A stretch of 64,000 nt of DNA, taken from positions 4,402,001-4,466,000 of the forward strand of contig NZ_CP135052.1 in assembly GCF_029193595.2 (NCBI RefSeq), read 5' to 3'. The notes below the pieces were generated by a model. It was not told where the DNA came from, did not search any database, and saw only the letters and a program-made list of their open reading frames with translations. The position numbers and the translations under genes are program-made. Position 1 is the stretch's first letter, and each line of letters opens with the position of its first letter. Source of the DNA: Providencia hangzhouensis. Its GTDB lineage: Bacteria; Pseudomonadota; Gammaproteobacteria; Enterobacterales; Enterobacteriaceae. Below are positions 8,127 to 23,063 of this stretch, piece after piece.

Positions 8127-9575
8127 ATGGATTTATCAATGAAAAATTTCAAGCTCACTAAGCTAGCAATACTTGCTGTGCTCGGTACCATCAGTGCACA
8201 AAGCGTTGCAGGGGGATTAGTTCTACCAGATAACAACTTACGCAGTGACCTTGCTTGGCTTTCTGAACGTAACGTTATTCAAATTAGCTTATCCACTTGG
8301 CCACTGTCCCAAGAAGAAATCACGCGTTCTTTAAATAATGCAAATATTACTAATAGCGAACAAGAAGCCATTATTCAGCGCATTAAAAAGAACCTTGACC
8401 GTAAGAAAAACAGTGTTCAACTAGAAACTCACCTTGCATCTAGCCACAACTCAATGCCACAAGGGTTTGCTCAAAGTGAATATAGTGATATTCGCTATAC
8501 CGTTTCAGGTAACTACAGCACTGACGATGTAGACTTAAACCTCACCGCGAATGGCGAACGTGCTTTACGTGTTGAAAATGGTTCTGATTACAACCTCAAT
8601 GGTTCATATGGTGGTGTAAAAATTTGGAACCAGTGGGTAACTTTTGGTGAGATCCCACAATGGTGGGGCCCCGGCCACGACGGCAGCTTAATTCGAACTG
8701 ATGCCGCACGCCCTATGACCGGTTTCTTAATTCAGCGTGCAGACCAAAGCCCATTTGAAACCCCATGGCTTTCTTGGATTGGTTCATGGCAATATCAGTT
8801 AACAGCTGCACAATTCAAACAGTATGATCCCAAAAATACTAAACTGATTGGCCTGCGCATGACCATGAACCCAACTGATTTCTTCGAACTCGGTGGTTCA
8901 CGCGTGGTCATGTGGGGAGGCGATGGCCGCCCTAATAACTGGGATTCTTTCTGGAATGCGATGGGCGGTAGAGATAATACCGGTGACTATCACGATGACC
9001 CAGGTAACCAACTGGCCGGTTTAGATTTCAAACTAAAACTTTACCCATTAATCGACTTACCTGTCAGCTTATATGGCCAAATGGTGGGTGAAGACGAGGC
9101 TAACCTCTTCCCATCGAAAAACGCCTTTATGGGTGGTATCGAAGGCTACCACACCTTATGGGGCCAGCCACTAAATTGGTATATTGAAGGCGCGAACACC
9201 CACACAGAGTGGAATAAAGATAACGTCATGTATCGCCACTTTATCTATACTGAGGGCTACTATCAGCAAGGTGCATCACTAGGCCACGCAATGGGCGGTG
9301 ACGGGCGCATGCTCACGACCAAAGTGGAATACACTCTCGATGATGACAACCGTGTCAGCACCCGCCTCATGTATGCGAAAGTGAATAAATCTAACTTTGA
9401 TGGCAACAAGTTATTCCCTAAATCAGAAACCATCAAAGGTGTTGATTTCGGTTGGTGGCATAACTTTGACTATGACATCAGCACTGACGCGAAGGTTTGG
9501 GTATCTAAAACTGATTACGAAACACGCAATGACTTAGGTGCAGCCGTTACAGTAAACGTGCCGTTTAAGTGGTAA
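8127..9575 (+). CDS. wzi: Capsule-associated outer-membrane protein Wzi
   Basis: A 482-residue outer-membrane beta-barrel lectin that holds capsular polysaccharide on the cell surface. A signal peptide ends near QSVAGG. The mature start GLVLPDNNLRSDLAWLSERNVIQ is the Wzi helical plug region, and FGEIPQWWGPGHDGSL and WWHNFDYDIS are family blocks; the protein ends in VTVNVPFKW with a C-terminal aromatic residue typical of barrels. A second in-frame ATG at 8139 gives a more usual signal peptide and may be the true start. It lies apart from wza-wzb-wzc, with its own terminator. Confidence 0.93.
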   Translation: MDLSMKNFKLTKLAILAVLGTISAQSVAGGLVLPDNNLRSDLAWLSERNVIQISLSTWPLSQEEITRSLNNANITNSEQEAIIQRIKKNLDRKKNSVQLETHLASSHNSMPQGFAQSEYSDIRYTVSGNYSTDDVDLNLTANGERALRVENGSDYNLNGSYGGVKIWNQWVTFGEIPQWWGPGHDGSLIRTDAARPMTGFLIQRADQSPFETPWLSWIGSWQYQLTAAQFKQYDPKNTKLIGLRMTMNPTDFFELGGSRVVMWGGDGRPNNWDSFWNAMGGRDNTGDYHDDPGNQLAGLDFKLKLYPLIDLPVSLYGQMVGEDEANLFPSKNAFMGGIEGYHTLWGQPLNWYIEGANTHTEWNKDNVMYRHFIYTEGYYQQGASLGHAMGGDGRMLTTKVEYTLDDDNRVSTRLMYAKVNKSNFDGNKLFPKSETIKGVDFGWWHNFDYDISTDAKVWVSKTDYETRNDLGAAVTVNVPFKW

Positions 9576-9603
9576 TTGGCACACATTGAGTATATTTAAT
9601 CGA

Positions 9604-9637
9604 AAACGGGTTATGTTTTGGCATAATCCGTTTTTTT
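9604..9637 (+). terminator. Rho-independent terminator of wzi
   Basis: ACGGGTTATG (9606-9615) pairs with CATAATCCGT (9622-9631), including one G-T pair, and is followed by T7. It separates wzi transcription from the downstream operon. Confidence 0.88.
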
Positions 9638-10223: not shown

Positions 10224-11414
10224 ATGAATCAAATACTCCCTCTTATCGGTCGTTCTAATGCTTTATTTAGTCAAGACATTAAGGCTTATGAAAACGAACT
10301 TATTAAAATAGTTAGTCAATCACGTTTTTTAGTTCTAGGTGGGGCTGGTTCAATTGGTCAGGCAGTAACGAAAGAGATATTTAAACGTAACCCTAAAAAA
10401 CTTCATGTTGTTGATATTAGTGAAAACAACATGGTTGAATTAGTGAGAGATATCCGCAGCTCATTTGGTTATATCAATGGGGATTTCCAAACTTTTGCTT
10501 TAGATATTAGCTCCATCGAATATGATGCGTTTATTAAAGCTGATGGGCAGTATGACTATGTTTTAAATTTATCAGCACTAAAACATGTTCGCAGTGAGAA
10601 AGATCCATTTACCCTAATGCGTATGATTGATGTCAATATTTTTAATACCGATAAAACAATACAACAATCAATTAATTCAGGTGTTAAAAAATATTTTTGT
10701 GTATCTACTGATAAGGCCGCTAACCCAGTCAATATGATGGGAGCTTCAAAGCGTATTATGGAAATGTTCTTAATGCGTCGCAGCGAAGAAATAGAAATAT
10801 CAACAGCCCGCTTTGCGAATGTCGCCTTTTCTGACGGCTCTCTCCTTCATGGATTTGACCAAAGACTGAAGAAACGTCAGCCTATCGTTGCACCTAATGA
10901 TATCAAGCGCTACTTCGTGACACCTCAAGAATCGGGGGAATTATGTTTAATGTCATGTATTTTTGGTGAAAACAGGGACATTTTCTTCCCTAAACTTAGT
11001 GAAGTCCTTCACCTTATTACCTTTGCTGATATTGCAGTTAAATACCTAAAACAACGTGGCTATGAACCGTATTTATGTAAAGATGAGGACGAAGCTAGAG
11101 AACTCGCTAAAACACTACCAGCTCAAGGGAAATGGCCTTGCCTCTTCACATCAAGCGATACGACTGGTGAAAAAGATTTCGAAGAGTTTTTCACAGATAA
11201 AGAAATACTCGACATGGCACGTTTTGAAAATCTCGGCATCATTAAAAATAAAGCGAATTATCAGCCAGAACTATTATCGTTATTTGAAACTGAAATCGCA
11301 CAAATGAAATCGCAAAAAGCGTGGAATAAAGAACAAATTGTTGCGCTATTTTTTAAAATGATCCCCGATTTCGGCCACCAAGAAACCGGAAAATATCTCG
11401 ATAGTAAAATGTAA
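10224..11414 (+). CDS. legB: Nucleotide-sugar 4,6-dehydratase, LegB-like
   Basis: A 396-residue soluble extended short-chain dehydrogenase of the CapD family. The NAD-binding glycine motif GGAGSIG is at about residues 39-45; STDKA and MGASKR carry the catalytic Thr/Asp/Lys, with Met in place of the usual Tyr as in this dehydratase family. In legionaminic acid synthesis LegB converts GDP-GlcNAc to the 4-keto-6-deoxy sugar. The assignment rests on its position before a LegC-like aminotransferase and hydrolysing epimerase; a UDP-sugar substrate cannot be excluded. It is the first gene after the JUMPStart leader. Confidence 0.82.
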   Translation: MNQILPLIGRSNALFSQDIKAYENELIKIVSQSRFLVLGGAGSIGQAVTKEIFKRNPKKLHVVDISENNMVELVRDIRSSFGYINGDFQTFALDISSIEYDAFIKADGQYDYVLNLSALKHVRSEKDPFTLMRMIDVNIFNTDKTIQQSINSGVKKYFCVSTDKAANPVNMMGASKRIMEMFLMRRSEEIEISTARFANVAFSDGSLLHGFDQRLKKRQPIVAPNDIKRYFVTPQESGELCLMSCIFGENRDIFFPKLSEVLHLITFADIAVKYLKQRGYEPYLCKDEDEARELAKTLPAQGKWPCLFTSSDTTGEKDFEEFFTDKEILDMARFENLGIIKNKANYQPELLSLFETEIAQMKSQKAWNKEQIVALFFKMIPDFGHQETGKYLDSKM

Positions 11415-11423
11415 GGCCAGTCA

Positions 11424-12569
11424 ATGAAACCACAAGCACTGATAGAGTTTATTCGAGACACATACAAAACGAATGATTTCATTCCGCTACATGCCCCAAC
11501 ATTTACGGGTAATGAAAAAAATTATGTTGTAGAAACCATCGATAGTACTTTCGTCTCTAGTGTCGGAAAATTCGTCGACGAATTTGAACGAAAGATAGAA
11601 GCATTTACTGGTAGCACTCGTGCCGTTGCCACCGTTAATGGGACTGCGGCATTACATACCGCTCTTTATATGGCGGGCGTTCGAGCTAATGATTTAGTTA
11701 TTACACAAGCATTAACCTTTGTTGCTACTTGTAATGCGCTCTATCATATGGGGGCTCAACCTATTTTTGTTGATGTTTCCCCTATCAGTTTAAGTCTATG
11801 TCCTAAAGCGGTAGAACAATACCTCGAAGAACATGCAGAACTCGCTGAGAACGGCTGCTTTCATAAACAAACAAAGCAAGCAATTAAAGCCGTCGTCCCA
11901 ATGCATACATTTGGTCACCCCGCAGAATTAGACGAATTACTTTCCGTATGTCAAAAATGGCAGCTTGCTTTAGTTGAAGATGCAGCGGAAAGTTTAGGGT
12001 CTTTTTATAAAGGTAAGCACACTGGCACTATCGGTGAATTCTCTGCATTAAGCTTTAATGGTAATAAAATCATTACAACTGGCGGTGGCGGGATGGTTCT
12101 TTGCGCCACAGAAGAAGCTGGAAAACATACAAAACATGTCACAACAACAGCAAAAATTCCTCATCCATATGAATTTTTTCATGACGAGCCAGGATTTAAT
12201 TACCGTTTACCCAATTTAAATGCCGCGTTAGGCTGTGCCCAAATGGAACATTTACCCTTATTTTTAGAGCAAAAACGCAGACTCGCAAATCAATACCAAA
12301 ATTTCTTCGCTGGTAGCGATTATCAATTTGTTGTTGAGCCATCTTATGCGAAATCTAATTATTGGCTAAATGCCGTCATCTGTTCCGATGCAAAATCACG
12401 AGATGAGCTGTTGAAACAGACAAATGAAGCAGGTGTAATGACTCGCCCTATTTGGAAACTGATGCACCGTCTACCAATGTTCAAAGACGCTTTATGTGGA
12501 GACCTCTGTCAATCTGAGTTTATTGAAGCACATTTAATTAATTTGCCAAGTACACCCATTTTAGTTTAA
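11424..12569 (+). CDS. legC: Sugar aminotransferase, LegC-like
   Basis: A 381-residue PLP-dependent aminotransferase of the DegT/DnrJ/EryC1/StrS family. The Schiff-base lysine is at about residue 215 in SFNGNKIITTGGGG; VEDAAESLGS carries the PLP-binding Asp. The predicted step is amination of C4 of the LegB product, using glutamate. It follows legB after 9 bases and precedes the epimerase by 12, so it is part of the same operon. The family is certain; the sugar substrate is inferred from context. Confidence 0.87.
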   Translation: MKPQALIEFIRDTYKTNDFIPLHAPTFTGNEKNYVVETIDSTFVSSVGKFVDEFERKIEAFTGSTRAVATVNGTAALHTALYMAGVRANDLVITQALTFVATCNALYHMGAQPIFVDVSPISLSLCPKAVEQYLEEHAELAENGCFHKQTKQAIKAVVPMHTFGHPAELDELLSVCQKWQLALVEDAAESLGSFYKGKHTGTIGEFSALSFNGNKIITTGGGGMVLCATEEAGKHTKHVTTTAKIPHPYEFFHDEPGFNYRLPNLNAALGCAQMEHLPLFLEQKRRLANQYQNFFAGSDYQFVVEPSYAKSNYWLNAVICSDAKSRDELLKQTNEAGVMTRPIWKLMHRLPMFKDALCGDLCQSEFIEAHLINLPSTPILV

Positions 12570-12581
12570 GAAGAACTTTAA

Positions 12582-13748
12582 ATGAAAAATATAGCAGTAT
12601 TTACTGGTACTCGTGCTGAATATGGGCTCTTATTTTGGCTCTTAAAGGATATACAAGCCGATCCTGAATTAAATCTACAACTTATAGTTTCAGGAATGCA
12701 TTTATCTCCTGAATTTGGAGAAACATACCAACAAATAGAGCAAGATGGATTTAATATTACTGAGAAAATAGAAATATTATTGTCTTCTAACTCACCTGTT
12801 GGAACTGCAAAAAGCATGGGTCTTGGTATACTTGGTTTTAGTGATGCATTTTCTAGAATAACACCAGATGTTCTCGTTATACTTGGAGACCGGTTTGAAG
12901 CATTAGCGGCTGCACAAACAGCAATGATTTTGCGAATTCCTGTGATTCACCTACATGGTGGGGAGATCACAGAAGGTGCATATGATGATGCGATTCGCCA
13001 TGCTATTACCAAGCTTAGTTACTTACACGGAACTTCAACAGAAGAATACCGCCAACGGGTTATCCAGCTTGGCGAGAGCCCTGAGCGAGTAAAAAATATC
13101 GGTGCTATTGGTTTAGACCATCTTAAACGAGGTCAATTCTTAGAGCTTCATGAACTCAGTAAATCTTTAAATTTTAAATTAGAAAACCCCTATTTTTTAG
13201 TCACATACCATCCTGTAACATTAGCTAATGAGTCCCCTGAAAAAAGTTTTCAAGCAATTTTGGACGCACTAGATCAATACCCAGACTATCAAGTTATTTT
13301 AACCTATCCAAATGCTGATGATGGTGGCCGACGAATTATCCCTATGCTTGAAGCATACGCTACTGAAAATCCTGAACGCATTCTCTCTATACCATCCCTT
13401 GGGCAGCTCCGTTATCTAAGTGCGGTCAAGCATGCTGCTGCGGTTATTGGTAACTCCTCGAGTGGTATCATTGAAGTACCGTCATTTAATGTACCAACTG
13501 TCAACATAGGTGTTCGACAAAAAGGTCGTTTGGCTGCAGAAAGTGTTCTAAATTGCTCGGCTGACTCAAACTCCATATACGAAACAATTCAATTAGCACT
13601 TAGCAAATATAATGATCTTGATAATAAAAAGATCATCAATCCTTATGGTCAGGGTGATAGTAGCAGCCAAGTAATTGACATGATAAAAACATTGCATTTT
13701 GAACCTTGCAAAAGATTTTATGACTTACCTTTTGAACTGAAGCAATAG
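12582..13748 (+). CDS. legG: Hydrolysing NDP-sugar 2-epimerase, LegG/NeuC family
   Basis: A 388-residue GT-B-fold enzyme of the WecB/NeuC family. It inverts C2 and releases the nucleotide, giving the free manno-configured sugar for condensation. Visible family blocks are TGTRAEYGLL at residues 8-17, GDRFEALAAA at about 106, HLHGGEITEGAYDDAIRHA at about 125-143, and NSSSGIIEVPSF near residue 300. With LegB and LegC upstream, the substrate is predicted to be the GDP-linked 2,4-diacetamido-2,4,6-trideoxyglucose, not UDP-GlcNAc as for true NeuC. Confidence 0.88.
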   Translation: MKNIAVFTGTRAEYGLLFWLLKDIQADPELNLQLIVSGMHLSPEFGETYQQIEQDGFNITEKIEILLSSNSPVGTAKSMGLGILGFSDAFSRITPDVLVILGDRFEALAAAQTAMILRIPVIHLHGGEITEGAYDDAIRHAITKLSYLHGTSTEEYRQRVIQLGESPERVKNIGAIGLDHLKRGQFLELHELSKSLNFKLENPYFLVTYHPVTLANESPEKSFQAILDALDQYPDYQVILTYPNADDGGRRIIPMLEAYATENPERILSIPSLGQLRYLSAVKHAAAVIGNSSSGIIEVPSFNVPTVNIGVRQKGRLAAESVLNCSADSNSIYETIQLALSKYNDLDNKKIINPYGQGDSSSQVIDMIKTLHFEPCKRFYDLPFELKQ

Positions 13749-13758
13749 GGTACAACAT

Positions 13759-14832
13759 ATGACTATTATTATCGCAGAAGCGGGTGTTAATCATAATGGT
13801 AGTGAAAAACTAGCATTTGAGCTTGTTGATGCAGCTTTCAATGCTGGTGCAGACATCGTTAAATTTCAGACCTTTAAAGCTAAGAATTTAGTTACAGAAC
13901 ATGCCGAACAAGCTACATATCAAGTTAAAAATACACAAAAACAAGAATCGCAGCTTGCAATGCTAAGTCGGTTAGAACTGTCCTATGATGCTCATCACCA
14001 GCTCATTAAATATTGCAATAAATTAGGCATTGAATTTTTATCCACTGCATTTGATGATGAGAGTCTTGATTTTTTAGTGACTGATCTCGGCTTAAGTCGC
14101 TTAAAAATTCCTTCAGGAGAATTAACGAATGCACCATTAGTGCTCAAGCATGCACGCAGTGGTTGTGATTTAATCGTATCCACAGGAATGGCAACATTAG
14201 CTGAAATAGAGATGGCATTAGGTGTAATCGCTTTTGGTTACACCAAAGATAAAAGTGCGATGCCTTCAATATCCGCCTTCCAAGAGGCATATGCATCCAA
14301 AGCAGGACAAGAAGCATTAAAAACTAAAGTTACCTTATTGCACTGTACCACTGAATATCCAGCACCAATGGAAGAAATTAATCTATGTGCGATGGATACG
14401 TTAGGTCTTGCATTTGCTCTACCAATGGGATATTCAGATCACAGTGAAGGAATTACGATTCCAATTGCCGCTACTGCTCGCGGAGCCGTATTAATTGAAA
14501 AGCACTTTACTCTTGATAAAAATATGGAAGGTCCTGATCATAAAGCATCTCTAGAACCGCAAGAGTTAACCGAAATGGTGAGAGCAATACGGCAAGTCGA
14601 ACTGGCTTTAGGCTCTAGAATAAAAACACCGACTATATCTGAAATAAAGAATAAATCTGTTGCTCGCAAAAGTTTAGTTGCAGCTAAACCTATTAAAGCT
14701 GGTGAGACATTTAGTTCTGAAAACCTAACAATTAAACGACCTGGAAATGGAATATCACCATATAGATACTGGGAGCTCCTAGGAAATACCGCTCATAATG
14801 AATATAAGCCTGGAGATTTAATTCTTGAGTAA
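13759..14832 (+). CDS. legI: Nonulosonate synthase, LegI/NeuB family
   Basis: A 357-residue enzyme that condenses a six-carbon amino sugar with phosphoenolpyruvate to form a nine-carbon nonulosonic acid. The TIM-barrel part carries EAGVNHNGS at 6-14 and DIVKFQTFKA at about 34-43; the GYSDHSEG and IEKHFTLD blocks hold metal and substrate residues. A C-terminal SAF (antifreeze-like) domain occupies about 290-357. The family is clear; legionaminic rather than sialic acid is inferred from the dehydratase and aminotransferase upstream. Confidence 0.9.
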   Translation: MTIIIAEAGVNHNGSEKLAFELVDAAFNAGADIVKFQTFKAKNLVTEHAEQATYQVKNTQKQESQLAMLSRLELSYDAHHQLIKYCNKLGIEFLSTAFDDESLDFLVTDLGLSRLKIPSGELTNAPLVLKHARSGCDLIVSTGMATLAEIEMALGVIAFGYTKDKSAMPSISAFQEAYASKAGQEALKTKVTLLHCTTEYPAPMEEINLCAMDTLGLAFALPMGYSDHSEGITIPIAATARGAVLIEKHFTLDKNMEGPDHKASLEPQELTEMVRAIRQVELALGSRIKTPTISEIKNKSVARKSLVAAKPIKAGETFSSENLTIKRPGNGISPYRYWELLGNTAHNEYKPGDLILE

Positions 14833-15472
14833 TAAAAAGCCGGTGGTCATTATTGGCGGGGGTGGCCATGCAAGTGTATTAGCAGATATATTACGCTATC
14901 AAGATAGGAAAATCCTTTCCGTTATTTGCCCTGATGATATACGAGTAAGAGCTATTTTTAAAAACCTTCCACACTTAATACAAGATCATGAAATTAAAAA
15001 ATTTCATCCTGATGAGGTCTTATTAATTAATGGAATAGGTATACTTCCAAACTCAAATTTACGAACTAAAGTGAATTCATACTTTACATCATTGGGCTAT
15101 CAATTTGATAGCGTCATCGCTGATAGTGCTATTGTCTCCAATTATGCAACTCTTCATTCTGGTGTACAAATTTTACCGAGAGCAATAATTCAAGCTGGCA
15201 CTATCATTAAAGACAATACTATTATTAATACTGGAGCAATTGTTGAACATGATTGCATAATTGGGCGCAATAACCATATTGCCCCCGCTTCCACGATTTG
15301 TGGCGAAGTTACAACGTTTGATGATGTATTTATCGGTACTAATGCCACCATAATTCAAGGTATTAGCATCGCTCAAGGTTCAATCATTGGAGCTGGCGCA
15401 ATAGTTACACAGGATATTTTATTCTCAAGCATTTGTTACCCAAGCCCAATTACCGTCAAAACAAATAAATAG
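14825..15472 (+). CDS. NeuD/PglD-type sugar N- or O-acetyltransferase (LegH candidate)
   Basis: A 215-residue acetyl-CoA-dependent transferase. The N-terminal Rossmann part starts VVIIGGGGHASVLADIL, and residues about 95-205 form a left-handed beta-helix of hexapeptide repeats, with the likely catalytic His in VEHDCIIG. It probably starts at TTG and overlaps the synthase gene by eight bases. A LegH-type N-acetylation of the 4-amino sugar is needed in the pathway and no other acetyltransferase is present, so this is the best candidate. NeuD-like O-acetylation of the finished nonulosonate is the alternative. Confidence 0.83.
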   Translation: MSNKKPVVIIGGGGHASVLADILRYQDRKILSVICPDDIRVRAIFKNLPHLIQDHEIKKFHPDEVLLINGIGILPNSNLRTKVNSYFTSLGYQFDSVIADSAIVSNYATLHSGVQILPRAIIQAGTIIKDNTIINTGAIVEHDCIIGRNNHIAPASTICGEVTTFDDVFIGTNATIIQGISIAQGSIIGAGAIVTQDILFSSICYPSPITVKTNK

Positions 15473-15488
15473 GTTTAAAAGGGATTCT

Positions 15489-16556
15489 ATGAGTTATAAT
15501 TGGAAAAATGTTCTTATTAATACAGAAAATACTATTCGTGAAGCATTAGAAATTATAAATAATGAAGCTTTACGTGTTGCTCTTGTTATTAATGAGGAAC
15601 AACATTTAGCCGGTATTGTTACTGATGGGGATATCCGCAGAGGGTTACTAAATAATCTACAGCTAAGCGATCCGATATCCTCAATTATGAATCAATCACC
15701 TACTACTGCTAAGGTAGGAACTTCACGTCAAAAACTTGTTGAATTGATGGAATCAAAAAGTATTTTATCAATACCAATAATTGACGATGATAATAGAATA
15801 ATTGGATTAGAAACGCTGGGTAACTCCCTTAATCAAAAAACATACCAAAACCCTGTATTTATTATGGCTGGTGGATTCGGCACTCGTTTACGCCCACTAA
15901 CCGATAACTGCCCAAAGCCTATGTTAAAGATTGGGAATAAACCAATTCTTGAAACAGTTATTCGTAGCTTTATCTCTGCAGGGTTCGTTAATTTTTATAT
16001 ATCGACTCATTATATGCCAGAGCAGATCCAAGAACACTTTGGCAATGGTAATGAATTAGGTGTTAAAATCTCATATGTCCATGAAGAGTTACCTCTAGGT
16101 ACTGGAGGAGCACTTGGTTTACTCCCTAAAGACTTACCTAAAGACCTTCCTCTCATCATGATGAATGGTGACGTCCTTACTAATGTAGATTTTCAGCGTT
16201 TACTTGACTTCCATATTTTACATGATGCTGATGCTACTATGTGTGTACGTGAATATGACTATCAAATCCCATATGGTGTCATCAATGGTGAAGGAAATAA
16301 AATTACTAGTATGGTTGAAAAACCGATACAGCGTTTTTTTGTTAACGCTGGTATCTATGTAGTTTCTCCTCGAGTAATAAATTCCGTACCTAAAAACCAC
16401 CGTATAGATATGCCAACTTTACTTGAACAGCATATGAATGAACGAAATAATATTTTAATGTTTCCTATCTATGAGTACTGGTTAGATATTGGCAGAATGG
16501 ATGACTTTAATAGAGCGCAAATTGATATCAAAACCATAGGGCTCAACTATGAATAA
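15489..16556 (+). CDS. ptmE: CBS-domain sugar-1-phosphate guanylyltransferase, PtmE-like
   Basis: A 355-residue fusion. Residues 1-120 form a pair of CBS domains (VTDGDIRRGLL is a typical CBS end). Residues about 120-355 form a nucleotidyltransferase with MAGGFGTRLRPLT and KPMLKIGNKPILE at its start and the metal-binding Asp in MMNGDVLTN. In Campylobacter jejuni PtmE makes GDP-glucosamine from GlcN-1-phosphate for legionaminic acid. This fusion is the strongest sign that the locus uses the GDP-sugar legionaminate route. Its stop overlaps the next gene by eight bases. Confidence 0.86.
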   Translation: MSYNWKNVLINTENTIREALEIINNEALRVALVINEEQHLAGIVTDGDIRRGLLNNLQLSDPISSIMNQSPTTAKVGTSRQKLVELMESKSILSIPIIDDDNRIIGLETLGNSLNQKTYQNPVFIMAGGFGTRLRPLTDNCPKPMLKIGNKPILETVIRSFISAGFVNFYISTHYMPEQIQEHFGNGNELGVKISYVHEELPLGTGGALGLLPKDLPKDLPLIMMNGDVLTNVDFQRLLDFHILHDADATMCVREYDYQIPYGVINGEGNKITSMVEKPIQRFFVNAGIYVVSPRVINSVPKNHRIDMPTLLEQHMNERNNILMFPIYEYWLDIGRMDDFNRAQIDIKTIGLNYE

Positions 16557-17532
16557 TGTTGCTGTAATCGGTTTAGGTAATATTGCAAGTAGACATCGAC
16601 GTAATTTAAGAGTTTTATTTCCTGATGCAAAGATATATGCCGTGTCGGCTAGTGGCCGTGTACCGACTGAAAATATAAGTGATTGTGACAAGCTGTTTGC
16701 TTCCATTGATGAATTAATTCTAGAAAACGTTCAATTGGCCATTATAGCTTCACCGGCTCCTTTTCATACACATCATGCAATTCCATTTATTAAAGCCTAT
16801 ATTCCAGTATTAATTGAAAAACCTGTTACATCTACATTAGAAGAAGCAAAAGAACTTCAACAAATAGCTGAAAAATACTCTACTCCTATAGCAGTAGGGT
16901 ATTGCTTACGTTACTTATCATCAGCACAAGCTATGAAAGAATTAATAGAGGCGCAGCAAATCGGTACATTATCTTACGTAAACATTGAAATCGGGCAATA
17001 CCTACCAGATTGGCGACCAAATAAAGATTACCGTAATTGTGTGTCTGCAAATTCAAAACTTGGTGGCGGTGCATTGTTAGAACTTAGCCACGAAATTGAT
17101 TACGTCCAATGGCTATTAGGACCGTTGCACCTACAACATGCTATTTTGCAGTGCTCTGAACAATTAAGTTTAGAGGTTGAAGATAACGTAAATATTCTTG
17201 CAACAACTAGTAATAATACCATCGTTAATATTCATTTAGATTTTTTACAACGCAAAGCATATAGGTATTGTCGATTCGTTGGAACTAGCGGTTCATTAGA
17301 ATGGGACTTAATCAAAAATGAAATTATTTTCACAACGAAAAACCAAGTTACCACTTTATATAGTGATCCCGAATGGGATAAAAATAACATGTACTTAGAA
17401 ATGCTTCTAGATTTTATTGAAAAGATAAACGGGAAAAAAAATCAATCCATAACATTATCTGAATCAATAGAAACAATTGAGTTTATTGAAAACATAAAAA
17501 AAACTTATCCACCCATTATTACATCAAAGTGA
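16549..17532 (+). CDS. ptmF: Gfo/Idh/MocA family oxidoreductase, PtmF-like
   Basis: A 327-residue NAD(P)-dependent oxidoreductase. The Rossmann motif GLGNIASRHRRNL lies at residues 8-20; IEKPVTST, carrying the conserved EKP, is at about 90, and GGGALLELSHEIDYVQWL is the substrate-binding GGG-xxxDxxxH-like block. In C. jejuni the equivalent gene (ptmF) sits between ptmE and the CMP-nonulosonate synthetase, exactly as here. A role in supplying the amino-sugar precursor has been proposed, but the reaction is not settled to my knowledge. Confidence 0.82.
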   Translation: MNNVAVIGLGNIASRHRRNLRVLFPDAKIYAVSASGRVPTENISDCDKLFASIDELILENVQLAIIASPAPFHTHHAIPFIKAYIPVLIEKPVTSTLEEAKELQQIAEKYSTPIAVGYCLRYLSSAQAMKELIEAQQIGTLSYVNIEIGQYLPDWRPNKDYRNCVSANSKLGGGALLELSHEIDYVQWLLGPLHLQHAILQCSEQLSLEVEDNVNILATTSNNTIVNIHLDFLQRKAYRYCRFVGTSGSLEWDLIKNEIIFTTKNQVTTLYSDPEWDKNNMYLEMLLDFIEKINGKKNQSITLSESIETIEFIENIKKTYPPIITSK

Positions 17533-17556
17533 TGTTGAAATATAGGTTCACTTACA

Positions 17557-18246
17557 ATGAAAAATTTCGCCTTTATTTTTGCACGTGGTGGTTCCAAAGG
17601 GTTACCCCATAAAAATATTAAGTTATTAGCAGGTAAACCATTATTACAGTATTCAATTGATATCGCGAAAAATGCTCCATCTATTGATAAAGTTTTTGTA
17701 TCAACCGACGATGAAGATATTGCTAAAATTGCTAAATTAAATGGAGCAACTGTTATTCTTCGCCCCAAAGAGCTAGCAAGCGATACCAGTCCCGAATGGC
17801 TTTCATGGCGACATGCGATTGACTGGGTAGAAAAATATTATGGTCGATTTGATGGGTTTATCAGTTTGCCAGCAACAAGCCCATTACGCAGTATTCAGGA
17901 TGTTGAGGATGCCATAGCGAAAAGAGAGAGTGAACAAGCAGATATTTGTATTTCTGTCACCCCTTCGAGTCGCAGTCCCTATTTTAATATGGTAAAAAAA
18001 ACAGCAAATGGGTTTGTAGAGATCGTTAACCCACCTAATGCTGAAGTAGCCCGCCGACAAGATGCCCCTGCAGTGTTCGATATAACAACTGTTGTTTACG
18101 CAACAACCCCGCTATTTGTTCAAAATAATTATGGACTTTTTTCAGGGCAAGTAACCAGTATAGAAATACCGAAGGATCGTGCCGTTGATATAGACGATAT
18201 TTACGATTTTCGTTTAGCTGAAGCTATTATTATGGAGTGCAAATAA
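17557..18246 (+). CDS. legF: CMP-nonulosonate cytidylyltransferase, LegF/PtmB-like
   Basis: A 229-residue cytidylyltransferase that activates the nonulosonic acid with CTP, giving the CMP-sugar donor. The nucleotide-binding motif ARGGSKGLPHKNI is at residues 8-20, VSTDDEDIAKIA at about 48, and SLPATSPLRS at about 104 carries the CTP/substrate residues of the NeuA family. The terminal IPKDRAVDIDDIYDFRLAE is also typical. The product is predicted to be CMP-legionaminic acid or a stereoisomer. The stop codon overlaps the next start (TAATG). Confidence 0.9.
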   Translation: MKNFAFIFARGGSKGLPHKNIKLLAGKPLLQYSIDIAKNAPSIDKVFVSTDDEDIAKIAKLNGATVILRPKELASDTSPEWLSWRHAIDWVEKYYGRFDGFISLPATSPLRSIQDVEDAIAKRESEQADICISVTPSSRSPYFNMVKKTANGFVEIVNPPNAEVARRQDAPAVFDITTVVYATTPLFVQNNYGLFSGQVTSIEIPKDRAVDIDDIYDFRLAEAIIMECK

Positions 18247-19016
18247 TGGAAAATTTATTAAAAGATAAAAATATTTTAGTTATTGGCGCAGGTGGTTTAT
18301 TGGGCTCTACATTAGTAACTGAATTACTGAATCAAAAAGCAAGAGTTATTGCTGCAGATATAAATCTAGAAGTGATGAGTAATCGACTAAAGTCAATGAA
18401 CGTTAATACACAAAATCCGAATATTCGCCTTTTACAATGTAACATTGTAGATAAAGAATCAGTGAAAAACATGTTAGATAACACACTTGAAATAGATGGT
18501 GCCGTTAATACAACTTACCCTAGAAACAATAAATATGGCAGCCACTTTTTCGATGTATCCTTAGAAAGCTTTAACGAAAATCTATCATTACATTTAGGCA
18601 GTTCATTTTTATTTACGCAACAATGTGCAGCTTATTTTTTGAGAAATAAAAAACCCTTTTCGCTAGTCAACATATCATCAATATATGGCGTAATCGCGCC
18701 TAAATTTAAAATATATGAAAATACTAGTATGACTATGCCTGTTGAATATGCAGCGATTAAATCAGCCCTACTTCATTTAAATAAATACGTTGTTTCTTAT
18801 ATAAATGATAGTAAGTTCAGAATTAACTGCGTGAGTCCTGGTGGAATATTTGATTCTCAGCCAGAAGAATTTCTAAATGCTTATAAAGCCAATACTCATG
18901 GTGAAGGCATGCTTAATGTGAAAGAGATCATTGGTTCCATTATGTTTTTACTTTCAGAACAATCACAATATGTTACCGGTCAAAATATTATCGTTGATGA
19001 TGGCTTTTCACTTTAA
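18246..19016 (+). CDS. ptmA: Short-chain dehydrogenase/reductase, PtmA-like
   Basis: A classical SDR of 256 residues. The coenzyme motif is VIGAGGLLGSTLV near the N-terminus; the catalytic triad is Ser in NISSIYG and YxxxK in EYAAIKSA. The ATG used here gives a TAATG overlap and has GGAG eight bases upstream; a GTG nine bases earlier is in frame. PtmA follows the CMP-nonulosonate synthetase in the C. jejuni flagellin-glycosylation locus, as here. Its reaction is not settled; precursor supply or modification of the nonulosonate are options. Confidence 0.8.
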   Translation: MENLLKDKNILVIGAGGLLGSTLVTELLNQKARVIAADINLEVMSNRLKSMNVNTQNPNIRLLQCNIVDKESVKNMLDNTLEIDGAVNTTYPRNNKYGSHFFDVSLESFNENLSLHLGSSFLFTQQCAAYFLRNKKPFSLVNISSIYGVIAPKFKIYENTSMTMPVEYAAIKSALLHLNKYVVSYINDSKFRINCVSPGGIFDSQPEEFLNAYKANTHGEGMLNVKEIIGSIMFLLSEQSQYVTGQNIIVDDGFSL

Positions 19017-20241
19017 CCCTAATACCCTCTTAGCTATTGCTCTTAGAGGAAGCAGCTTACTTAGTAAGTTTGCCTTATTATTTATTTTATCCGCACAAGA
19101 TGACCCCAAAATATTAGTATCGTATACGGTTATGTTCTCCATTATTGTATACTCACTGTATATAATAAATTTTGATTTGTATACATACACTACTCGTATT
19201 TTATCTCATGCAGAGAAAGAAAATAGAGGCCCTATTGTATTACAACATATCAACTCTACACTAATATTGTGTGTAATAACAATACCTTTATTATATGCCT
19301 TTTTTTTATTTAATTACATTGATAAAAATGACCTTTTTTATTTCTATATTATTTTAATACTAGAATTTTCCTCTACTGAGATTTATCGTTACTTAGTTGC
19401 ATGTAAAGAACAGAACAAAGCTAATTTATATATATTCTTAAAATCTTCTTTATGGGTTTTTATATTCATTATAATCGTTTTAATAAAACGAGATGTAAAT
19501 ATTATTGAACTCTATGATACCTGGCTTTATGGGCAGTTAGTTGTTCTTATATTATCTTTTTTCTTTATAAAAAACACAGTAACGTTTAAAAAAACATATA
19601 AATATTCTATTAGCCAGCTTCTCACATCTATCAAAGTATCAATTCCAATATTAATAGGAACACTAGCAATAAGGGGGATATTTACATTTGATAGGATCTA
19701 TATCTCAAACGATGTTGATATTATTTTTTCATCTGCATATATGTTTTTTTCCACGTTATCAGGTGCTACTTTGACATTTGTAGATGCAATACTACTTATT
19801 GTAATAATTCCTAAGCTAGTTTCTTTAAGTAATAACACAAATCAACACTGCAAAGAATTTAGAGTTTTCATATTACGCTTAATATTTGTTTCAGGAATAA
19901 TATCCATTCTTGTAATGTTAATATCATTAATTATTTCATTCTTTCCCTCTTACGATAGATATAGCGAATATAGATATTTAATTTTATATTGTTCAACTTC
20001 AATGTTTATATTCATTCTTTCTCAGGGGTTTTCTATTTATTTTTACTCGCGTTCGAATGATGGTGTTAACATTAAAATAAATATATTATCATTTTTATTA
20101 TTTATAATATTAGCAAATATCTTCCCTAGTAAAAATATCCCTGCTTTAGTTTTCCTTACCATGCTTACTATTTTAGCATCAAAAGCATATGTTTATTATA
20201 TTTATAATCGGCATGAGAGTCTTCATGATAAACTACAATAA
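18997..20241 (+). CDS. wzx: Predicted polysaccharide flippase (Wzx-like)
   Basis: A very hydrophobic protein of about 414 residues with some 12 membrane segments and a MATE/PST-type pattern (LRGSSLLSKFALLF at the start). It would flip the undecaprenyl-linked repeat unit across the inner membrane. The tandem ATG at 18997/19000 gives a short overlap with the SDR gene; an in-frame ATG at 18931 would overlap by 86 bases and is less likely. The call rests on topology and on pairing with a Wzy-like gene. The DNA is much richer in A+T than the flanking wza-wzc genes. Confidence 0.72.
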   Translation: MMAFHFNPNTLLAIALRGSSLLSKFALLFILSAQDDPKILVSYTVMFSIIVYSLYIINFDLYTYTTRILSHAEKENRGPIVLQHINSTLILCVITIPLLYAFFLFNYIDKNDLFYFYIILILEFSSTEIYRYLVACKEQNKANLYIFLKSSLWVFIFIIIVLIKRDVNIIELYDTWLYGQLVVLILSFFFIKNTVTFKKTYKYSISQLLTSIKVSIPILIGTLAIRGIFTFDRIYISNDVDIIFSSAYMFFSTLSGATLTFVDAILLIVIIPKLVSLSNNTNQHCKEFRVFILRLIFVSGIISILVMLISLIISFFPSYDRYSEYRYLILYCSTSMFIFILSQGFSIYFYSRSNDGVNIKINILSFLLFIILANIFPSKNIPALVFLTMLTILASKAYVYYIYNRHESLHDKLQ

Positions 20242-21511
20242 TATTAAAGTTTTCTATTTCGCTCTAGCTATCTTCCTTTCTATCGAATCGTTATCAATAC
20301 TGATGCCTTTTAGCAGTATTTCAGAGTCTGGTTTTGCCTACTTTATCTACTATGCCATTTCATTTCTTTTCTTACTTTCATTAGCTCTATCTAGTATTAT
20401 CATTAGGAAAAAAATATATATTAGTAATCCATCTATCTTATACATATCAAAGATAGTTAATACGTTCTTAATACTTGGTACTCTAGGTGTTATAATGGTT
20501 ATCTATGATAGGATATATATACAGCAAGTAGACTATTCTCAAGGTATCGGATTAGCAAGAGAAATGTGGAGAGAGCAAGCTAAAGAGAGGGAAGGTGTAT
20601 CCAGTCTATACAATCTTCTTGGAAATATAATGTTTCCTCTCCTTTATTGGTCTTTTTCATTCTGTATTATATACTGGGAGGAAATTAATAATAGAAAGAA
20701 AATTATATTTTCAGTATTTTTAATTTTATTATTCTCAGCTATAACAGGAGGTAGAGAACCTGTTCTAGTTCTTATTGCAATATTCCTTTCATCATCATCA
20801 TTTCGCTCTATAATTAACAAGAAAACATTTAACAAGCGTGTTGTTAAATTTTCAATTTTTGCAATAACAGCCATTCTTATCTATTCAGTCTATATTGGGT
20901 ATATACGGTTTCAGGTTTATAATTTTACAATGCTACAATATGGAGAATCGTTAGCTAGCAGGCTGGGAGGAAGGCTTGATGATGTTAATATCATTAATAG
21001 TATCATTCCAGATACATTTTACCCAGTGGGAATATATATTACCCATGTAAAATGGGTTTTCATAAATACAATTGAATATTCTATTCTATATAATTTAGAT
21101 GGCATATCTTCTTTTAGACAAATAGTTAGTATGTTACACCAGTACATTCCATCCATCTTTGGCTCTTTAAATATAACAGCGCCAACGTATGCTCCAAATT
21201 GGATTCCTTTAACAGGATCAATCTGGTATGATTATAATATATATGGTATTTTTTTAATATTTTTGCTACCTTTTTCTACCTCTCTATTTTCTTTTTTTTG
21301 TTTTAAAATAAAAATATTAAATACTAGTTTATCATCAATAGTAGTATATGTATTTCTGAACTCAATTTTAATATTTGGCTGTTTTTCTTTTTTATTCGAA
21401 ACAGTTCAATTTATTTACCTTATATTTTCCATTCCCCTTTTGATAATTATAAAAATAGTGTCAAAATTTAAAATAAGCAGAGAAAAAAATGAAATCAATC
21501 GGATTTATTAA
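20225..21511 (+). CDS. wzy: Predicted repeat-unit polymerase (Wzy-like)
   Basis: A hydrophobic protein of about 428 residues with 10-12 membrane segments and one long hydrophilic loop between later helices (around VKWVFINT to APNWIPLTGS), the topology of O-antigen/capsule polymerases. The chosen ATG has GAGAG five bases upstream and overlaps wzx by 17 bases; an earlier in-frame ATG exists at 20189. An Arg-rich cytoplasmic or periplasmic segment, REMWREQAKEREG, precedes the middle helices. Wzy proteins are poorly conserved, so the call rests on topology and position. Confidence 0.75.
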   Translation: MINYNNIKVFYFALAIFLSIESLSILMPFSSISESGFAYFIYYAISFLFLLSLALSSIIIRKKIYISNPSILYISKIVNTFLILGTLGVIMVIYDRIYIQQVDYSQGIGLAREMWREQAKEREGVSSLYNLLGNIMFPLLYWSFSFCIIYWEEINNRKKIIFSVFLILLFSAITGGREPVLVLIAIFLSSSSFRSIINKKTFNKRVVKFSIFAITAILIYSVYIGYIRFQVYNFTMLQYGESLASRLGGRLDDVNIINSIIPDTFYPVGIYITHVKWVFINTIEYSILYNLDGISSFRQIVSMLHQYIPSIFGSLNITAPTYAPNWIPLTGSIWYDYNIYGIFLIFLLPFSTSLFSFFCFKIKILNTSLSSIVVYVFLNSILIFGCFSFLFETVQFIYLIFSIPLLIIIKIVSKFKISREKNEINRIY

Positions 21512-23063
21512 TGTTTATCCATATAGACCACATGCTCATCATGCATATTATATTAAAAAAAAATTATTAGAGCTATATGGAGAAATAAAAACGTATGCTC
21601 TTAACTGTAGTGGAAATACTACCACCTGTTATGTTAAAGAGTTAAAAGGCACCTCTAATAGTGAATGTAGAAAGTGTAAAATAGGTGGATTGCAGTCCTT
21701 CAATTTTGATGTAAATGAGAGCATTGATAAATATAATAAAATTTCAGATTTTAAAATTAATTACAGAGAACTAGTAAAGTCAAGTTCTTATACACTATCG
21801 AGGATAGAATCTCTTTCTGATATAAATTCAGAAGATGTTACTTATTTTCAAAACTTACTTATGCCAGGAGCCAAAAAATTTTTTCATGCGACAATAAATT
21901 GGTTAAAAGAAAACAACATTGAAATTCTTATATTGTTTAATGGCAGAATGGATTACACACGAGCAGCTTTAGAGGCAGCAAAAGAATTAGGAATACCATG
22001 CATAACACATGAAAGGCCGCTATTTGGACATGGTTTAATATTAAATCTCAATGAAAATTGTTCTTCACTCAAGAACATTCATGAAATCAATATTCAGTTT
22101 AAAAACAAAGCATTAACAAAAAAACAATCTCATTTAGCTGCAAAGTTACTAGCGGAACGATTCGTAGGAAAGAATAATTTAGAATGGAAAAAATATAACG
22201 AAAATCCTAATTCAGTCTCAGAGTGGCCTAACATTAACTCAAATATGAAAATACTGATATGTCCCAGTAGTAAAAATGAATTACTTGGACATCCTGATTG
22301 GAACACACCTTGGGGAAATAATACTGATGCTTTAGATATAATGCTTGATAATAATATTATACGTAGTGAAGATATTTTAGTAAGGTTCCATCCCTCATGG
22401 GCTGTATCATTTGGAAAAATTAATGCAAAAAAATGTTCTGAACATTATTTAAACTGGTGTAACAGAAGAAATATTAAGTATATACCAAGTGAAAGTAGTA
22501 TGAATACTAGAGATCTAATATCTATTAGTGATTTAGTGATCCTAAATGGAAGTAATACAATCTTAGAATCTGGAGCCATTGGTAAACCAACTTTATGTTT
22601 AGGTCCTTCACCATACACGCATTCAGGAGCCGCTATCGATATATTAAGTTTTAATGATTTAAAATCAATTAGTCTAGAAAAAATTTTATGTAGGGATAAA
22701 AAAGAGATTATTACTTCTACGCTTAGATATGTCTATTCTAGAGCCTATCGTGAACCACTATATGTAAATGAGGTAGTTTCAAAAACAGTGACTGAATGTG
22801 ATTTTTATAGCTCAGATACTCAAAACCCAATTGAAGATGTAATAAACGGTAAATTTATTGTAAATTGTAGTTCCTATGCAGAATCCTCCGATGAGGAAAT
22901 AAATATTGTCGATAGCTTAGCTAAAAACGATAACATCGTATTTTCAGAACTATCTAATTACCCTACTGATAGTATTACTGATTTTAATAAAATTAATTTA
23001 ACAAGAAAACATATATATCGCTTAGTTGATTGGGTCAGAAATATGCAAGCTAAAGGTGTCTAA
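21489..23063 (+). CDS. KpsS/LipB-like capsule glycosyltransferase, candidate nonulosonate transferase
   Basis: A 524-residue soluble protein with a GT-B look. The C-terminal half carries RFHPSW (about residue 298) and SDLVILNGSNTILESGAIGKPTLCLG (about 345-370), a layout shared with the capsule 'polysaccharide synthesis' proteins KpsS/KpsC and CMP-sugar-using transferases. Residues about 465-524 form an extra C-terminal tail. A Cys cluster, CYVKELKGTSNSECRKC, lies near residues 54-70. With only one other chain glycosyltransferase in the locus, this is the best candidate for adding the CMP-activated nonulosonate. The donor is inferred. It overlaps wzy by 23 bases. Confidence 0.62.
   Translation: MKSIGFINVYPYRPHAHHAYYIKKKLLELYGEIKTYALNCSGNTTTCYVKELKGTSNSECRKCKIGGLQSFNFDVNESIDKYNKISDFKINYRELVKSSSYTLSRIESLSDINSEDVTYFQNLLMPGAKKFFHATINWLKENNIEILILFNGRMDYTRAALEAAKELGIPCITHERPLFGHGLILNLNENCSSLKNIHEINIQFKNKALTKKQSHLAAKLLAERFVGKNNLEWKKYNENPNSVSEWPNINSNMKILICPSSKNELLGHPDWNTPWGNNTDALDIMLDNNIIRSEDILVRFHPSWAVSFGKINAKKCSEHYLNWCNRRNIKYIPSESSMNTRDLISISDLVILNGSNTILESGAIGKPTLCLGPSPYTHSGAAIDILSFNDLKSISLEKILCRDKKEIITSTLRYVYSRAYREPLYVNEVVSKTVTECDFYSSDTQNPIEDVINGKFIVNCSSYAESSDEEINIVDSLAKNDNIVFSELSNYPTDSITDFNKINLTRKHIYRLVDWVRNMQAKGV

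What the first reader, a model, noticed from the sequence alone, without database searches (positions are those of the whole stretch)
10224..19016. Complete GDP-route legionaminic acid gene set in an O-antigen/capsule locus
Seen: nine consecutive genes encoding CapD-type dehydratase, PLP aminotransferase, hydrolysing 2-epimerase, NeuB-family synthase, NeuD/PglD acetyltransferase, CBS-nucleotidyltransferase fusion, Gfo/Idh oxidoreductase, CMP-sugar synthetase and SDR. Known: C. jejuni makes CMP-legionaminic acid with LegB, LegC, LegG, LegI, LegF and PtmE, and its ptm locus has the same PtmE-PtmF-PtmB-PtmA order. Inference: this strain makes a bacillosamine-derived nonulosonic acid that mimics sialic acid on its surface. 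The C8 configuration (legionaminic or 8-epi) and the roles of PtmF and PtmA are open.
Basis: partly seen in the sequence, partly recalled or inferred. Interest (0 to 1): 0.75.

Follow-up and report, generated by a model that had tools for sequence, protein, structure and literature searches.

The report
Sugar-acid operon with C8-epimer cassette
A surface-sugar gene cluster in a Providencia-like bacterium carries legionaminic-acid genes plus a three-gene tail that most likely flips one carbon, so the cell probably displays 8-epi-legionaminic acid rather than legionaminic acid, and the tail looks like an exchangeable switch.

Summary
The nine genes are real, in the stated order and place, inside an O-antigen/capsule locus (wzi ... 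wza-wzb-wzc-galE-trmL) of a genome whose nearest named relatives are Providencia. (1) Gene 1 is not LegB (TIGR04180) but a 3PVZ-type dehydratase. (2) The product is most likely 8-epi-legionaminic acid: E. coli O61 (published 8eLeg) has the same nine genes in the same order; O161 (published Leg) lacks the Gfo/Idh and SDR genes, though its NeuB and NeuC differ too. In 65 related loci the tail is either Gfo/Idh, CMP synthetase, SDR (25) or one CMP synthetase of another clade (37); 3 are partial. Tail type is scattered on trees of all six base genes (15-22 changes, near random) but is one split on the CMP-synthetase tree (100/97). No single column of the six base proteins separates the kinds; 54 columns of the synthetase do, among them those aligned to S82 and Q104 of N. 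meningitidis NeuA. In 65 further loci the synthetase signature went with Gfo/Idh in 26 of 26 and SDR in 25 of 26. I infer C8 inversion on the free nonulosonate, before a dedicated synthetase. GDP use is untested. Known kind of locus; testable switch inference.

The parts
10224..11414 (+). CapD/Polysacc_synt_2 nucleotide-GlcNAc 4,6-dehydratase of the 3PVZ type (not LegB)
   Evidence: 3pvz chain over the full length, 779 bits; PF02719; no TIGR04180 LegB match over cut-off in the genome
11424..12569 (+). LegC-family PLP aminotransferase
   Evidence: TIGR04181 539.3 bits over cut-off 420
12582..13748 (+). hydrolysing 2-epimerase (NeuC/LegG type)
   Evidence: TIGR03568 over cut-off; best solved relatives 5zlr/5xvs, named GDP/UDP-N,N'-diacetylbacillosamine 2-epimerase
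13759..14832 (+). NeuB-family nonulosonate synthase (Leg branch)
   Evidence: TIGR03569 499.9 over cut-off; PseI model below its cut-off
14825..15472 (+). NeuD/PglD-type acetyltransferase (LegH role)
   Evidence: TIGR03570 over cut-off
15489..16556 (+). CBS-nucleotidyltransferase fusion (PtmE type)
   Evidence: PF00571 + PF00483; full-length homologue in 68 of 71 loci with a full NeuB
16549..17532 (+). Gfo/Idh/MocA oxidoreductase (PtmF/ElaA-like), first gene of the proposed C8-epimer tail
   Evidence: PF01408; EKP at 90-92, H181, D184 conserved in all or all but one of 25 rows; in 25 of 25 trio loci and 0 of 37 'none' loci (that is how the classes are defined)
17557..18246 (+). CMP-nonulosonate synthetase of the trio clade (E80, P105)
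   Evidence: PF02348; clade split 100/97; signature
18237..19016 (+). short-chain dehydrogenase (PtmA-like, PRK09186), third gene of the tail
   Evidence: NF006619 368.7 over cut-off 255; NF050062 PtmA 209.8 under cut-off 350; S147, S148, Y171, K175 conserved in all or all but one of 26 rows
18931..20241 (+). candidate Wzx flippase (ORF as listed; true start probably inside)
   Evidence: only a chance-level PF01943 match, E 7.3; hydrophobic sequence and position; inference
20189..21511 (+). candidate Wzy polymerase
   Evidence: no family match; hydrophobic sequence and position; inference
21489..23063 (+). GT-B-like protein, KpsC-like; candidate 8eLeg transferase
   Evidence: two of 45 relatives carry PF05159, one confirmed over cut-off; KpsC chains are the weak best profile hits, E 0.12; model pLDDT 90.8, KpsC target TM-score 0.45-0.53 among 2-epimerase hits
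23063..23803 (+). GT2 glycosyltransferase
   Evidence: PF00535
23800..25277 (+). NAD-dependent epimerase/reductase and initiating sugar-phosphate transferase
   Evidence: PF01370 and PF02397
25249..27204 (+). WbpM-like long 4,6-dehydratase
   Evidence: PF02719 429 bits plus PF13727
27265..32010 (+). wza, wzb, wzc, galE
   Evidence: PF02563 and PF18412; NF007520, NF008568 and galE models
8127..9575 (+). wzi capsule assembly protein
   Evidence: PF14052 267 bits

Best explanation
The operon makes CMP-activated 5,7-diacyl-8-epi-legionaminic acid for an O-antigen/capsule. Genes 1-6 (dehydratase, LegC, NeuC, NeuB, NeuD, PtmE) build legionaminic acid from a nucleotide-linked GlcNAc, probably GDP-linked. 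Genes 7-9 are a tail: the Gfo/Idh enzyme and the SDR together invert C8, most likely one oxidising the C8 hydroxyl to a ketone and the other reducing it from the other face. The inversion most likely acts on the free nonulosonate, and the CMP synthetase between them is dedicated to the 8-epimer. A locus that carries one NeuA-like synthetase in place of the tail makes legionaminic acid instead. Shown: gene content, the exchange pattern, the residue signature. Taken from print: the sugars of O61, O161, K49 and V. fischeri. Inferred: the product here, the order of steps, which enzyme oxidises, the use of GDP.
For: Chemistry labels: E. coli O61 (8eLeg in print) has all nine genes in this order (L010). 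E. coli O161 (Leg5NAc7N(D-Ala) in print) has a dehydratase and LegC of the same families but no Gfo/Idh and no SDR (L013). A. baumannii, the cleaner contrast because the base is the same: lgaABCDEFG is listed for Leg, lgaABCDEF/elaABC for 8eLeg, ElaA an oxidoreductase, LgaG the CMP synthetase. V. fischeri has named counterparts of genes 4-9 and an O-antigen with 8-epi-Leg. Exchange: 65 loci, 25 trio, 37 none, 3 partial; trees of all six base genes need 15-22 changes, shuffled means 15-20; the CMP-synthetase tree needs one; independent pairs on well-supported branches agree in 6 of 6, 12 of 12, 10 of 10, 12 of 12, 7 of 7 and 6 of 6 (genes 1-6). Step: no column of the six upstream proteins separates trio from none beyond a label shuffle, 54 columns of the CMP synthetase do. 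Pocket: E80/P105 in 20 of 20 gammaproteobacterial trio rows, Q105 in 37 of 37 none rows; 65 further loci agree. Precedent: EpaA (CTP-transferase + reductase) and EpaB (SDR) convert Pse to 8ePse. Natural near-twin: E. coli NT1F31 matches the window at 85.4% over 10220-16528 and then has another tail.
Against: No chemistry of this strain. O161 differs from O61 in more than the tail: its NeuB and NeuC are 51% identical to the window's and it has no NeuD-type gene. Campylobacter has the PtmE-PtmF-PtmB-PtmA order and is reported to make Leg (recalled; Schoenhofen 2009 is only cited in PMC4481668); the Campylobacterota- and Bacteroidota-type loci in my set carry a divergent tail (Gfo/Idh 27-31%, SDR 34-45%) and other pocket residues. 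P. shigelloides has the whole trio but is published as a Leg derivative from mass spectrometry and genes; in what I read, C8 was not determined. V. vulnificus holds proteins 60-61% identical to gene 7, while a Leg derivative is reported from that species; strains not matched. The SDR is missing beside the synthetase in L027 and L106. Co-segregation of the synthetase could be linkage, since it lies between the two genes. Earlier authors proposed CMP-Leg as the substrate and credit lgaABCDEF with making it. A ptmA insertion in P. shigelloides abolished flagella, which fits an optional epimerisation only if the transferase needs the epimer. A scan of single columns cannot see combined changes.
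Confidence: 0.76

Rival explanations
1. The product is ordinary legionaminic acid and the PtmF/PtmA-like enzymes help make the amino-sugar precursor, as the P. shigelloides authors assume after Campylobacter.
Against: 37 of 65 loci with PtmE and a CMP synthetase have neither gene, among them E. coli O161 with published Leg, so the pair is not needed for Leg. O61 with the pair has 8eLeg. The SDR is below NCBI's PtmA cut-off.
Confidence: 0.11
2. The C8 configuration is set by gene 1, a CapD-type dehydratase that inverts C5 of the hexose (C8 of the nonulosonate).
For: After 3pvz the next solved relatives are a 4,6-dehydratase/5-epimerase (4j2o) and CapE.
Against: O161 (Leg) and O61 (8eLeg) carry dehydratases 81% and 83% identical to the window's; no dehydratase column separates trio from none loci beyond the shuffle.
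Confidence: 0.03
3. The tail makes another change (a C4 or C7 epimer, as in acinetaminic acid, or both), not a simple C8 inversion.
For: A. baumannii aci genes give C7/C8 isomers on the same lga base.
Against: The trio loci for which I found a C8 configuration in print (O61; K49, by gene name only; V. fischeri) are 8-epi-Leg; the window's synthetase has the same nine-residue string as O61.
Confidence: 0.08
4. On the route, whichever epimer results: the precursor is UDP-linked (as in Legionella, recalled), and the PtmE-type enzyme does something else.
For: Relatives of gene 1 are annotated as UDP-GlcNAc enzymes; the solved NeuC relative is named GDP/UDP and has a UDP complex.
Against: A PtmE-type gene is full-length in 68 of 71 loci with a full NeuB; its best solved relative is a mannose-1-phosphate guanyltransferase.
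Confidence: 0.2

Closest known systems
E. coli O61 O-antigen cluster (elg genes; L010 here)
   Same: All nine genes, same order; 83/71/74/76/48/67/52/71/64% identity from gene 1 to 9; published sugar 8eLeg5Ac7Ac
   Different: Lies between galF and gnd; an acyltransferase follows the SDR; other wzx, wzy and transferases
A. baumannii lgaABCDEF/elaABC (K49, LAC-4)
   Same: Leg base plus an oxidoreductase-containing three-gene addition; an A. baumannii Gfo/Idh protein is 61% identical to gene 7
   Different: Sequences under the names ElaA-C were not obtained, so the one-to-one match is inferred
V. fischeri VF_0143-0146 region, and P. shigelloides flagellar Leg genes
   Same: V. fischeri NeuB, NeuD, PtmE, PtmF, NeuA and PtmA counterparts, and the ten P. 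shigelloides genes, are listed in PMC4481668 Table 5; V. fischeri has 8-epi-Leg
   Different: Place of V. fischeri NeuA and PtmA not seen; P. shigelloides is published as Leg; by the rule here it would be 8eLeg (inference)
C. jejuni/coli ptm-leg genes
   Different: LegB is of another family; PtmA equivalog cut-off not met; published sugar is Leg (recalled)
EpaA-EpaB of Acinetobacter prophages
   Same: A CTP-transferase coupled to a reductase, plus an SDR, invert C8 of a nonulosonic acid
   Different: Acts on pseudaminic acid; the reductase is an aldo-keto reductase fused to the CTP-transferase, not Gfo/Idh

Membership tests
C. jejuni-type GDP legionaminic acid set | LegB 4,6-dehydratase (TIGR04180 over cut-off) | tested here: not met
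   0 matches over 475 bits in the genome; best 122.7
C. jejuni-type GDP legionaminic acid set | LegC aminotransferase | tested here: met
   TIGR04181 539.3 over 420
C. jejuni-type GDP legionaminic acid set | GTP-specific PtmE guanylyltransferase | not testable with these tools
   family and co-occurrence only
C. jejuni-type GDP legionaminic acid set | PtmA (NF050062 over cut-off) | tested here: not met
   209.8 bits, cut-off 350
8-epi-Leg loci (lgaABCDEF/elaABC, O61 type) | six base genes, then Gfo/Idh, CMP synthetase, SDR | tested here: met
   same nine genes and order as L010
8-epi-Leg loci (lgaABCDEF/elaABC, O61 type) | CMP synthetase of the trio clade with E80/P105 (a feature found here, not in print) | tested here: met
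8-epi-Leg loci (lgaABCDEF/elaABC, O61 type) | sequence match to A. baumannii ElaA, ElaB, ElaC | tested here: inconclusive
   one A. baumannii Gfo/Idh 61%, not named ElaA there; ElaB and ElaC not compared
8-epi-Leg loci (lgaABCDEF/elaABC, O61 type) | 8-epi-Leg in the polysaccharide | not testable with these tools
   needs NMR
Pseudaminic acid pathway | PseB, PseC, PseI, PseF over cut-off | tested here: not met
   73.5/407.75, 211.9/423.5, 254.9/340.25, 128.8/205.7 bits
Neuraminic acid pathway | no dehydratase or aminotransferase before NeuC | tested here: not met
   both genes present and adjacent

The most novel reading that the evidence does not exclude
Bacterial legionaminic-acid loci carry a two-position stereochemical switch: the six-gene base keeps its task, and repeated exchange of its 3' end between one NeuA-like synthetase and a Gfo/Idh - dedicated CMP synthetase - SDR cassette sets C8. 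The inversion happens on the free nonulosonate between NeuB and CMP activation, contrary to the published proposal that CMP-Leg is converted, and E80/P105 of the synthetase reads out the epimer from sequence alone.
Probability: 0.55. Interest if true: 0.62.

Novelty: new member of a known kind. Interest (0 to 1): 0.5.

Why it matters
If right, some 'legionaminic acid' labels made from gene content or mass would need revision, and the sialic-acid-mimic reading would weaken for such strains.

Tried and rejected
First idea, that the CapD-type dehydratase fixes C8 by inverting C5: rejected, because O161 (Leg) and O61 (8eLeg) carry close relatives of it and no column separates the classes. The core of the ops/JUMPstart element (recalled motif, no mismatch allowed) is absent from the window; promoter-like sites at 9500-10300 are no more than shuffles give, 4 against a mean of 5.0. 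Wzx, Wzy and the KpsC-like protein have no counterpart over half their length in the 84 loci, so they do not help with the sugar. L011 is probably E. coli O108 (recalled); its flippase is not labelled, so I do not use it as a chemistry label. PMC9491580 was opened for the Providencia O-antigen site and gave nothing on it. The independent-pairs run stopped with an error at the PtmE tree, because L013 had been filtered out of that file (its translated stretch ran into the stop codon); the test was run for genes 3, 5 and 6. Rows dropped: of 84 loci (the best 80 of 505 relatives, plus 4 of the 23 E. coli genomes with a match), 65 had full PtmE and CMP synthetase and were used, 19 were not; 3 partial ones (L027, L031, L091) were left out of the two-state tests; the column scan left out 16 rows (13 outside the main gammaproteobacterial set, and the 3 partial).
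Full report
What is there. Nine ORFs on the + strand at 10224-19016 encode, in order, a Polysacc_synt_2 dehydratase, a LegC-family aminotransferase, a hydrolysing 2-epimerase, a NeuB-family synthase, a NeuD-type acetyltransferase, a CBS-nucleotidyltransferase fusion, a Gfo/Idh oxidoreductase, a CMP-sugar synthetase and a short-chain dehydrogenase. Upstream lie a response regulator, a CpxA-like kinase and wzi; downstream come two hydrophobic proteins (candidate Wzx and Wzy), a 524-residue protein, a GT2, an epimerase/reductase, an initiating sugar transferase, a WbpM-like dehydratase, wza, wzb, wzc, galE and trmL. The window is 4402001-4466000 of contig 1 of a 4.6-Mb genome. Among the 120 relatives of gene 7 listed, the nearest that bear a name are from Providencia (84, 71, 68 and 65%), so the genus is probably Providencia (inference).

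Which pathway. Model scores place it in the legionaminic branch: LegC, NeuC and NeuB models pass their cut-offs and PseB, PseC, PseI and PseF do not. It is not the C. jejuni set: no match in the genome reaches the LegB (TIGR04180) cut-off, and gene 1 is instead a full-length match, 779 bits, to the chain of 3pvz, which I recall as a Vibrio fischeri structure. The SDR passes PRK09186 (368.7 over 255) and misses NCBI's PtmA equivalog (209.8 against 350).

Chemistry labels. I looked for loci whose sugar is in print. E. coli O61 contains 8eLeg5Ac7Ac (passages of PMC3628348); the locus whose flippase RefSeq labels O61 (L010) has all nine genes in the same order. E. coli O161 contains Legp5NAc7N(D-alanyl) (table passage of PMC10609480); the locus labelled O161 (L013) has a dehydratase and aminotransferase of the same families, NeuB, NeuC, PtmE and a CMP synthetase, but no Gfo/Idh and no SDR. 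O161 is not a clean twin: its NeuB and NeuC are 51% identical to the window's and it has a FemA/B-type gene in place of NeuD. The cleaner contrast is A. baumannii, where lgaABCDEFG is listed for Leg and lgaABCDEF/elaABC for 8eLeg, with ElaA an oxidoreductase (passages of PMC9676051); LgaG is the CMP synthetase (passages of PMC12053666), so by these lists the 8eLeg module lacks the Leg synthetase, although PMC5595891 credits lgaABCDEF alone with CMP-Leg (passage). The LAC-4 capsule with 8-epi-Leg has six ORFs, two of them oxidoreductases, beside leg1-6 (passages of PMC4345345). V. fischeri has counterparts of genes 4-9 (Table 5 passage of PMC4481668; the place of its NeuA and PtmA was not seen) and an O-antigen with 8-epi-Leg (passage of PMC7940393). 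Labels that do not fit or are unclear: P. shigelloides has the whole trio and is published as a Leg derivative from mass spectrometry and genes (abstract and passages), and PMC4875605 likens its genes to O161 (passage); C8 was not determined in what I read. Campylobacter is reported with Leg (recalled). V. vulnificus has proteins 60-61% identical to gene 7, and a Leg derivative is reported from V. vulnificus (section 4 of PMC7371886); I could not match strains. I read section 4 of PMC7371886 whole, and abstracts or passages of the others.

The exchange pattern. With four E. coli loci, opened out of 23 E. coli genomes of 5426 with a match, this gives 84, of which 65 have a full PtmE and a full CMP synthetase. 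Of the 65, 25 have both Gfo/Idh and SDR within 3.5 kb of the synthetase (trio), 37 have neither (none), 2 have Gfo/Idh only and 1 SDR only. On trees of genes 1-6 the trio/none label needs 18, 22, 17, 18, 15 and 17 changes; shuffled labels give means of 20, 20, 19, 20, 15 and 20. On the tree of the CMP synthetase the trio rows plus L027 are one side of one branch, support 100/97. Pairs of loci that differ in tail, on paths sharing no branch and counted on well-supported branches only, agree with the synthetase clade in 6 of 6, 12 of 12, 10 of 10, 12 of 12, 7 of 7 and 6 of 6 cases for genes 1-6. So the base and the tail have been exchanged many times, and the synthetase goes with the tail. A natural near-twin is E. 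coli NT1F31: 85.4% DNA identity to window 10220-16528, ending near the end of PtmE, then a synthetase of the other clade and no Gfo/Idh or SDR. In the window's genus 3 of 24 genomes, its own included, have the dehydratase at E 1e-60 or better; the two others keep wzi and genes 1-2 at 92-98% and then carry other synthases and epimerases and a 'none' tail.

Where the step lies. If C8 were inverted on a hexose precursor, NeuC and NeuB would see another substrate in trio loci. With 19-20 trio and 21-30 none rows per protein, no column of the six upstream proteins separates the classes beyond what shuffled labels give (best 0.78-0.82; shuffled 95% points 0.81-0.85), while 54 columns of the synthetase do at 0.95 or more. 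If the inversion came after CMP transfer, the synthetase would see legionaminic acid in both and would not need to differ. I therefore infer inversion of the free nonulosonate between NeuB and the synthetase. Linkage is the main alternative cause, because the synthetase gene lies between the other two, and a scan of single columns cannot see combined changes. PMC5595891 proposed CMP-Leg as the substrate (passage).

The synthetase pocket. All 20 gammaproteobacterial trio rows have E80 and P105; all 37 none rows have Q105, and 36 of 37 have S, T or A at 80. In the alignment printed by the PDB search these columns match S82 and Q104 of the N. meningitidis enzyme (1eyr), which I recall as sialic-acid contacts. 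The six Campylobacterota- or Bacteroidota-type trio rows have K80/D105 instead, so they may serve another substrate. In 63 further loci carry the EP signature, of which 24 have Gfo/Idh and 23 an SDR; 32 carry Q105 and none has either gene; 7 have other residues, one with a weak 23% Gfo/Idh match. Two more loci that were chosen by gene 7 (L103, L104) both carry the EP signature and an SDR, which makes 26 of 26 and 25 of 26. Signature and neighbours hold at 48-67% synthetase identity (L164, L104, L103); in L164 the SDR match is only 27%.

How it would work. Both flanking enzymes keep likely catalytic residues: EKP at 90-92, H181 and D184 in Gfo/Idh; S147, S148, Y171 and K175 in the SDR (conserved in all or all but one row; roles recalled). 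One would oxidise C8-OH and the other reduce the ketone from the other face; which is which is open. EpaA-EpaB, shown by NMR to turn Pse into 8ePse, pair a CTP-transferase-reductase fusion with an SDR, which is the same design with other parts. L027 and L106 have the Gfo/Idh and the EP synthetase without an SDR next to them, so the SDR may be elsewhere or dispensable.

Assembly. Two of 45 relatives of the 524-residue protein carry PF05159; its profile's weak best hits are KpsC chains (E 0.12), and its model (pLDDT 90.8) matches KpsC with target TM-scores of 0.45-0.53, while UDP-GlcNAc 2-epimerases take many of the top ranks. KpsC uses a CMP-activated ulosonic acid (recalled), so this is a fair candidate for the 8eLeg transferase (inference).

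Verdict. The locus is a member of a known kind, the 8-epi-Leg loci. The added value is a testable account of how the epimer is chosen. GDP use rests on co-occurrence of the PtmE-type gene (68 of 71 loci with a full NeuB) and is not shown. I do not claim that nobody has described the exchange pattern; my ten searches were of open papers only, and I opened 14 of the papers listed. On checking, confidence was lowered from 0.78 to 0.76 because O161 differs in NeuB, NeuC and NeuD as well, and P. shigelloides and V. vulnificus are now counted as unclear labels.

Noticed in passing
window 44220-45167 (-): A GT52-family gene (PF07922; a family that holds sialyltransferases, recalled) stands at the edge of the LPS core genes; it might place the same CMP-activated sugar on the core, as V. 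fischeri core is said to carry 8-epi-Leg (recalled).
   Followed up: no
L012 (E. coli NT1F31, 781030-806069): An E. coli chromosome holds a locus like the window's, with IS elements, a broken wzc plus galE at 77% and a 75-base trmL remnant matching the window, apparently moved in from that group.
   Followed up: partly
L031 18592-21186: A relative of the SDR lies beyond a CMP synthetase of the other clade, after a PLP enzyme and a nitrilase-like protein (names by eye); an unexplained nonulosonate variant.
   Followed up: partly
L027 19574-20608 and L106: Gfo/Idh plus EP-signature synthetase without an adjacent SDR; a dTDP-glucose dehydratase-like gene (by eye) follows in L027.
   Followed up: partly
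L100, L101 (same genus): Same wzi-flanked site and 92-98% identical genes 1-2, but different synthase, epimerase and tail; L101 resembles the O161 order.
   Followed up: partly
window 18001-24000: G+C falls to 28-30% over the candidate wzx, wzy and transferase genes, against 36-38% over 10001-16000.
   Followed up: no
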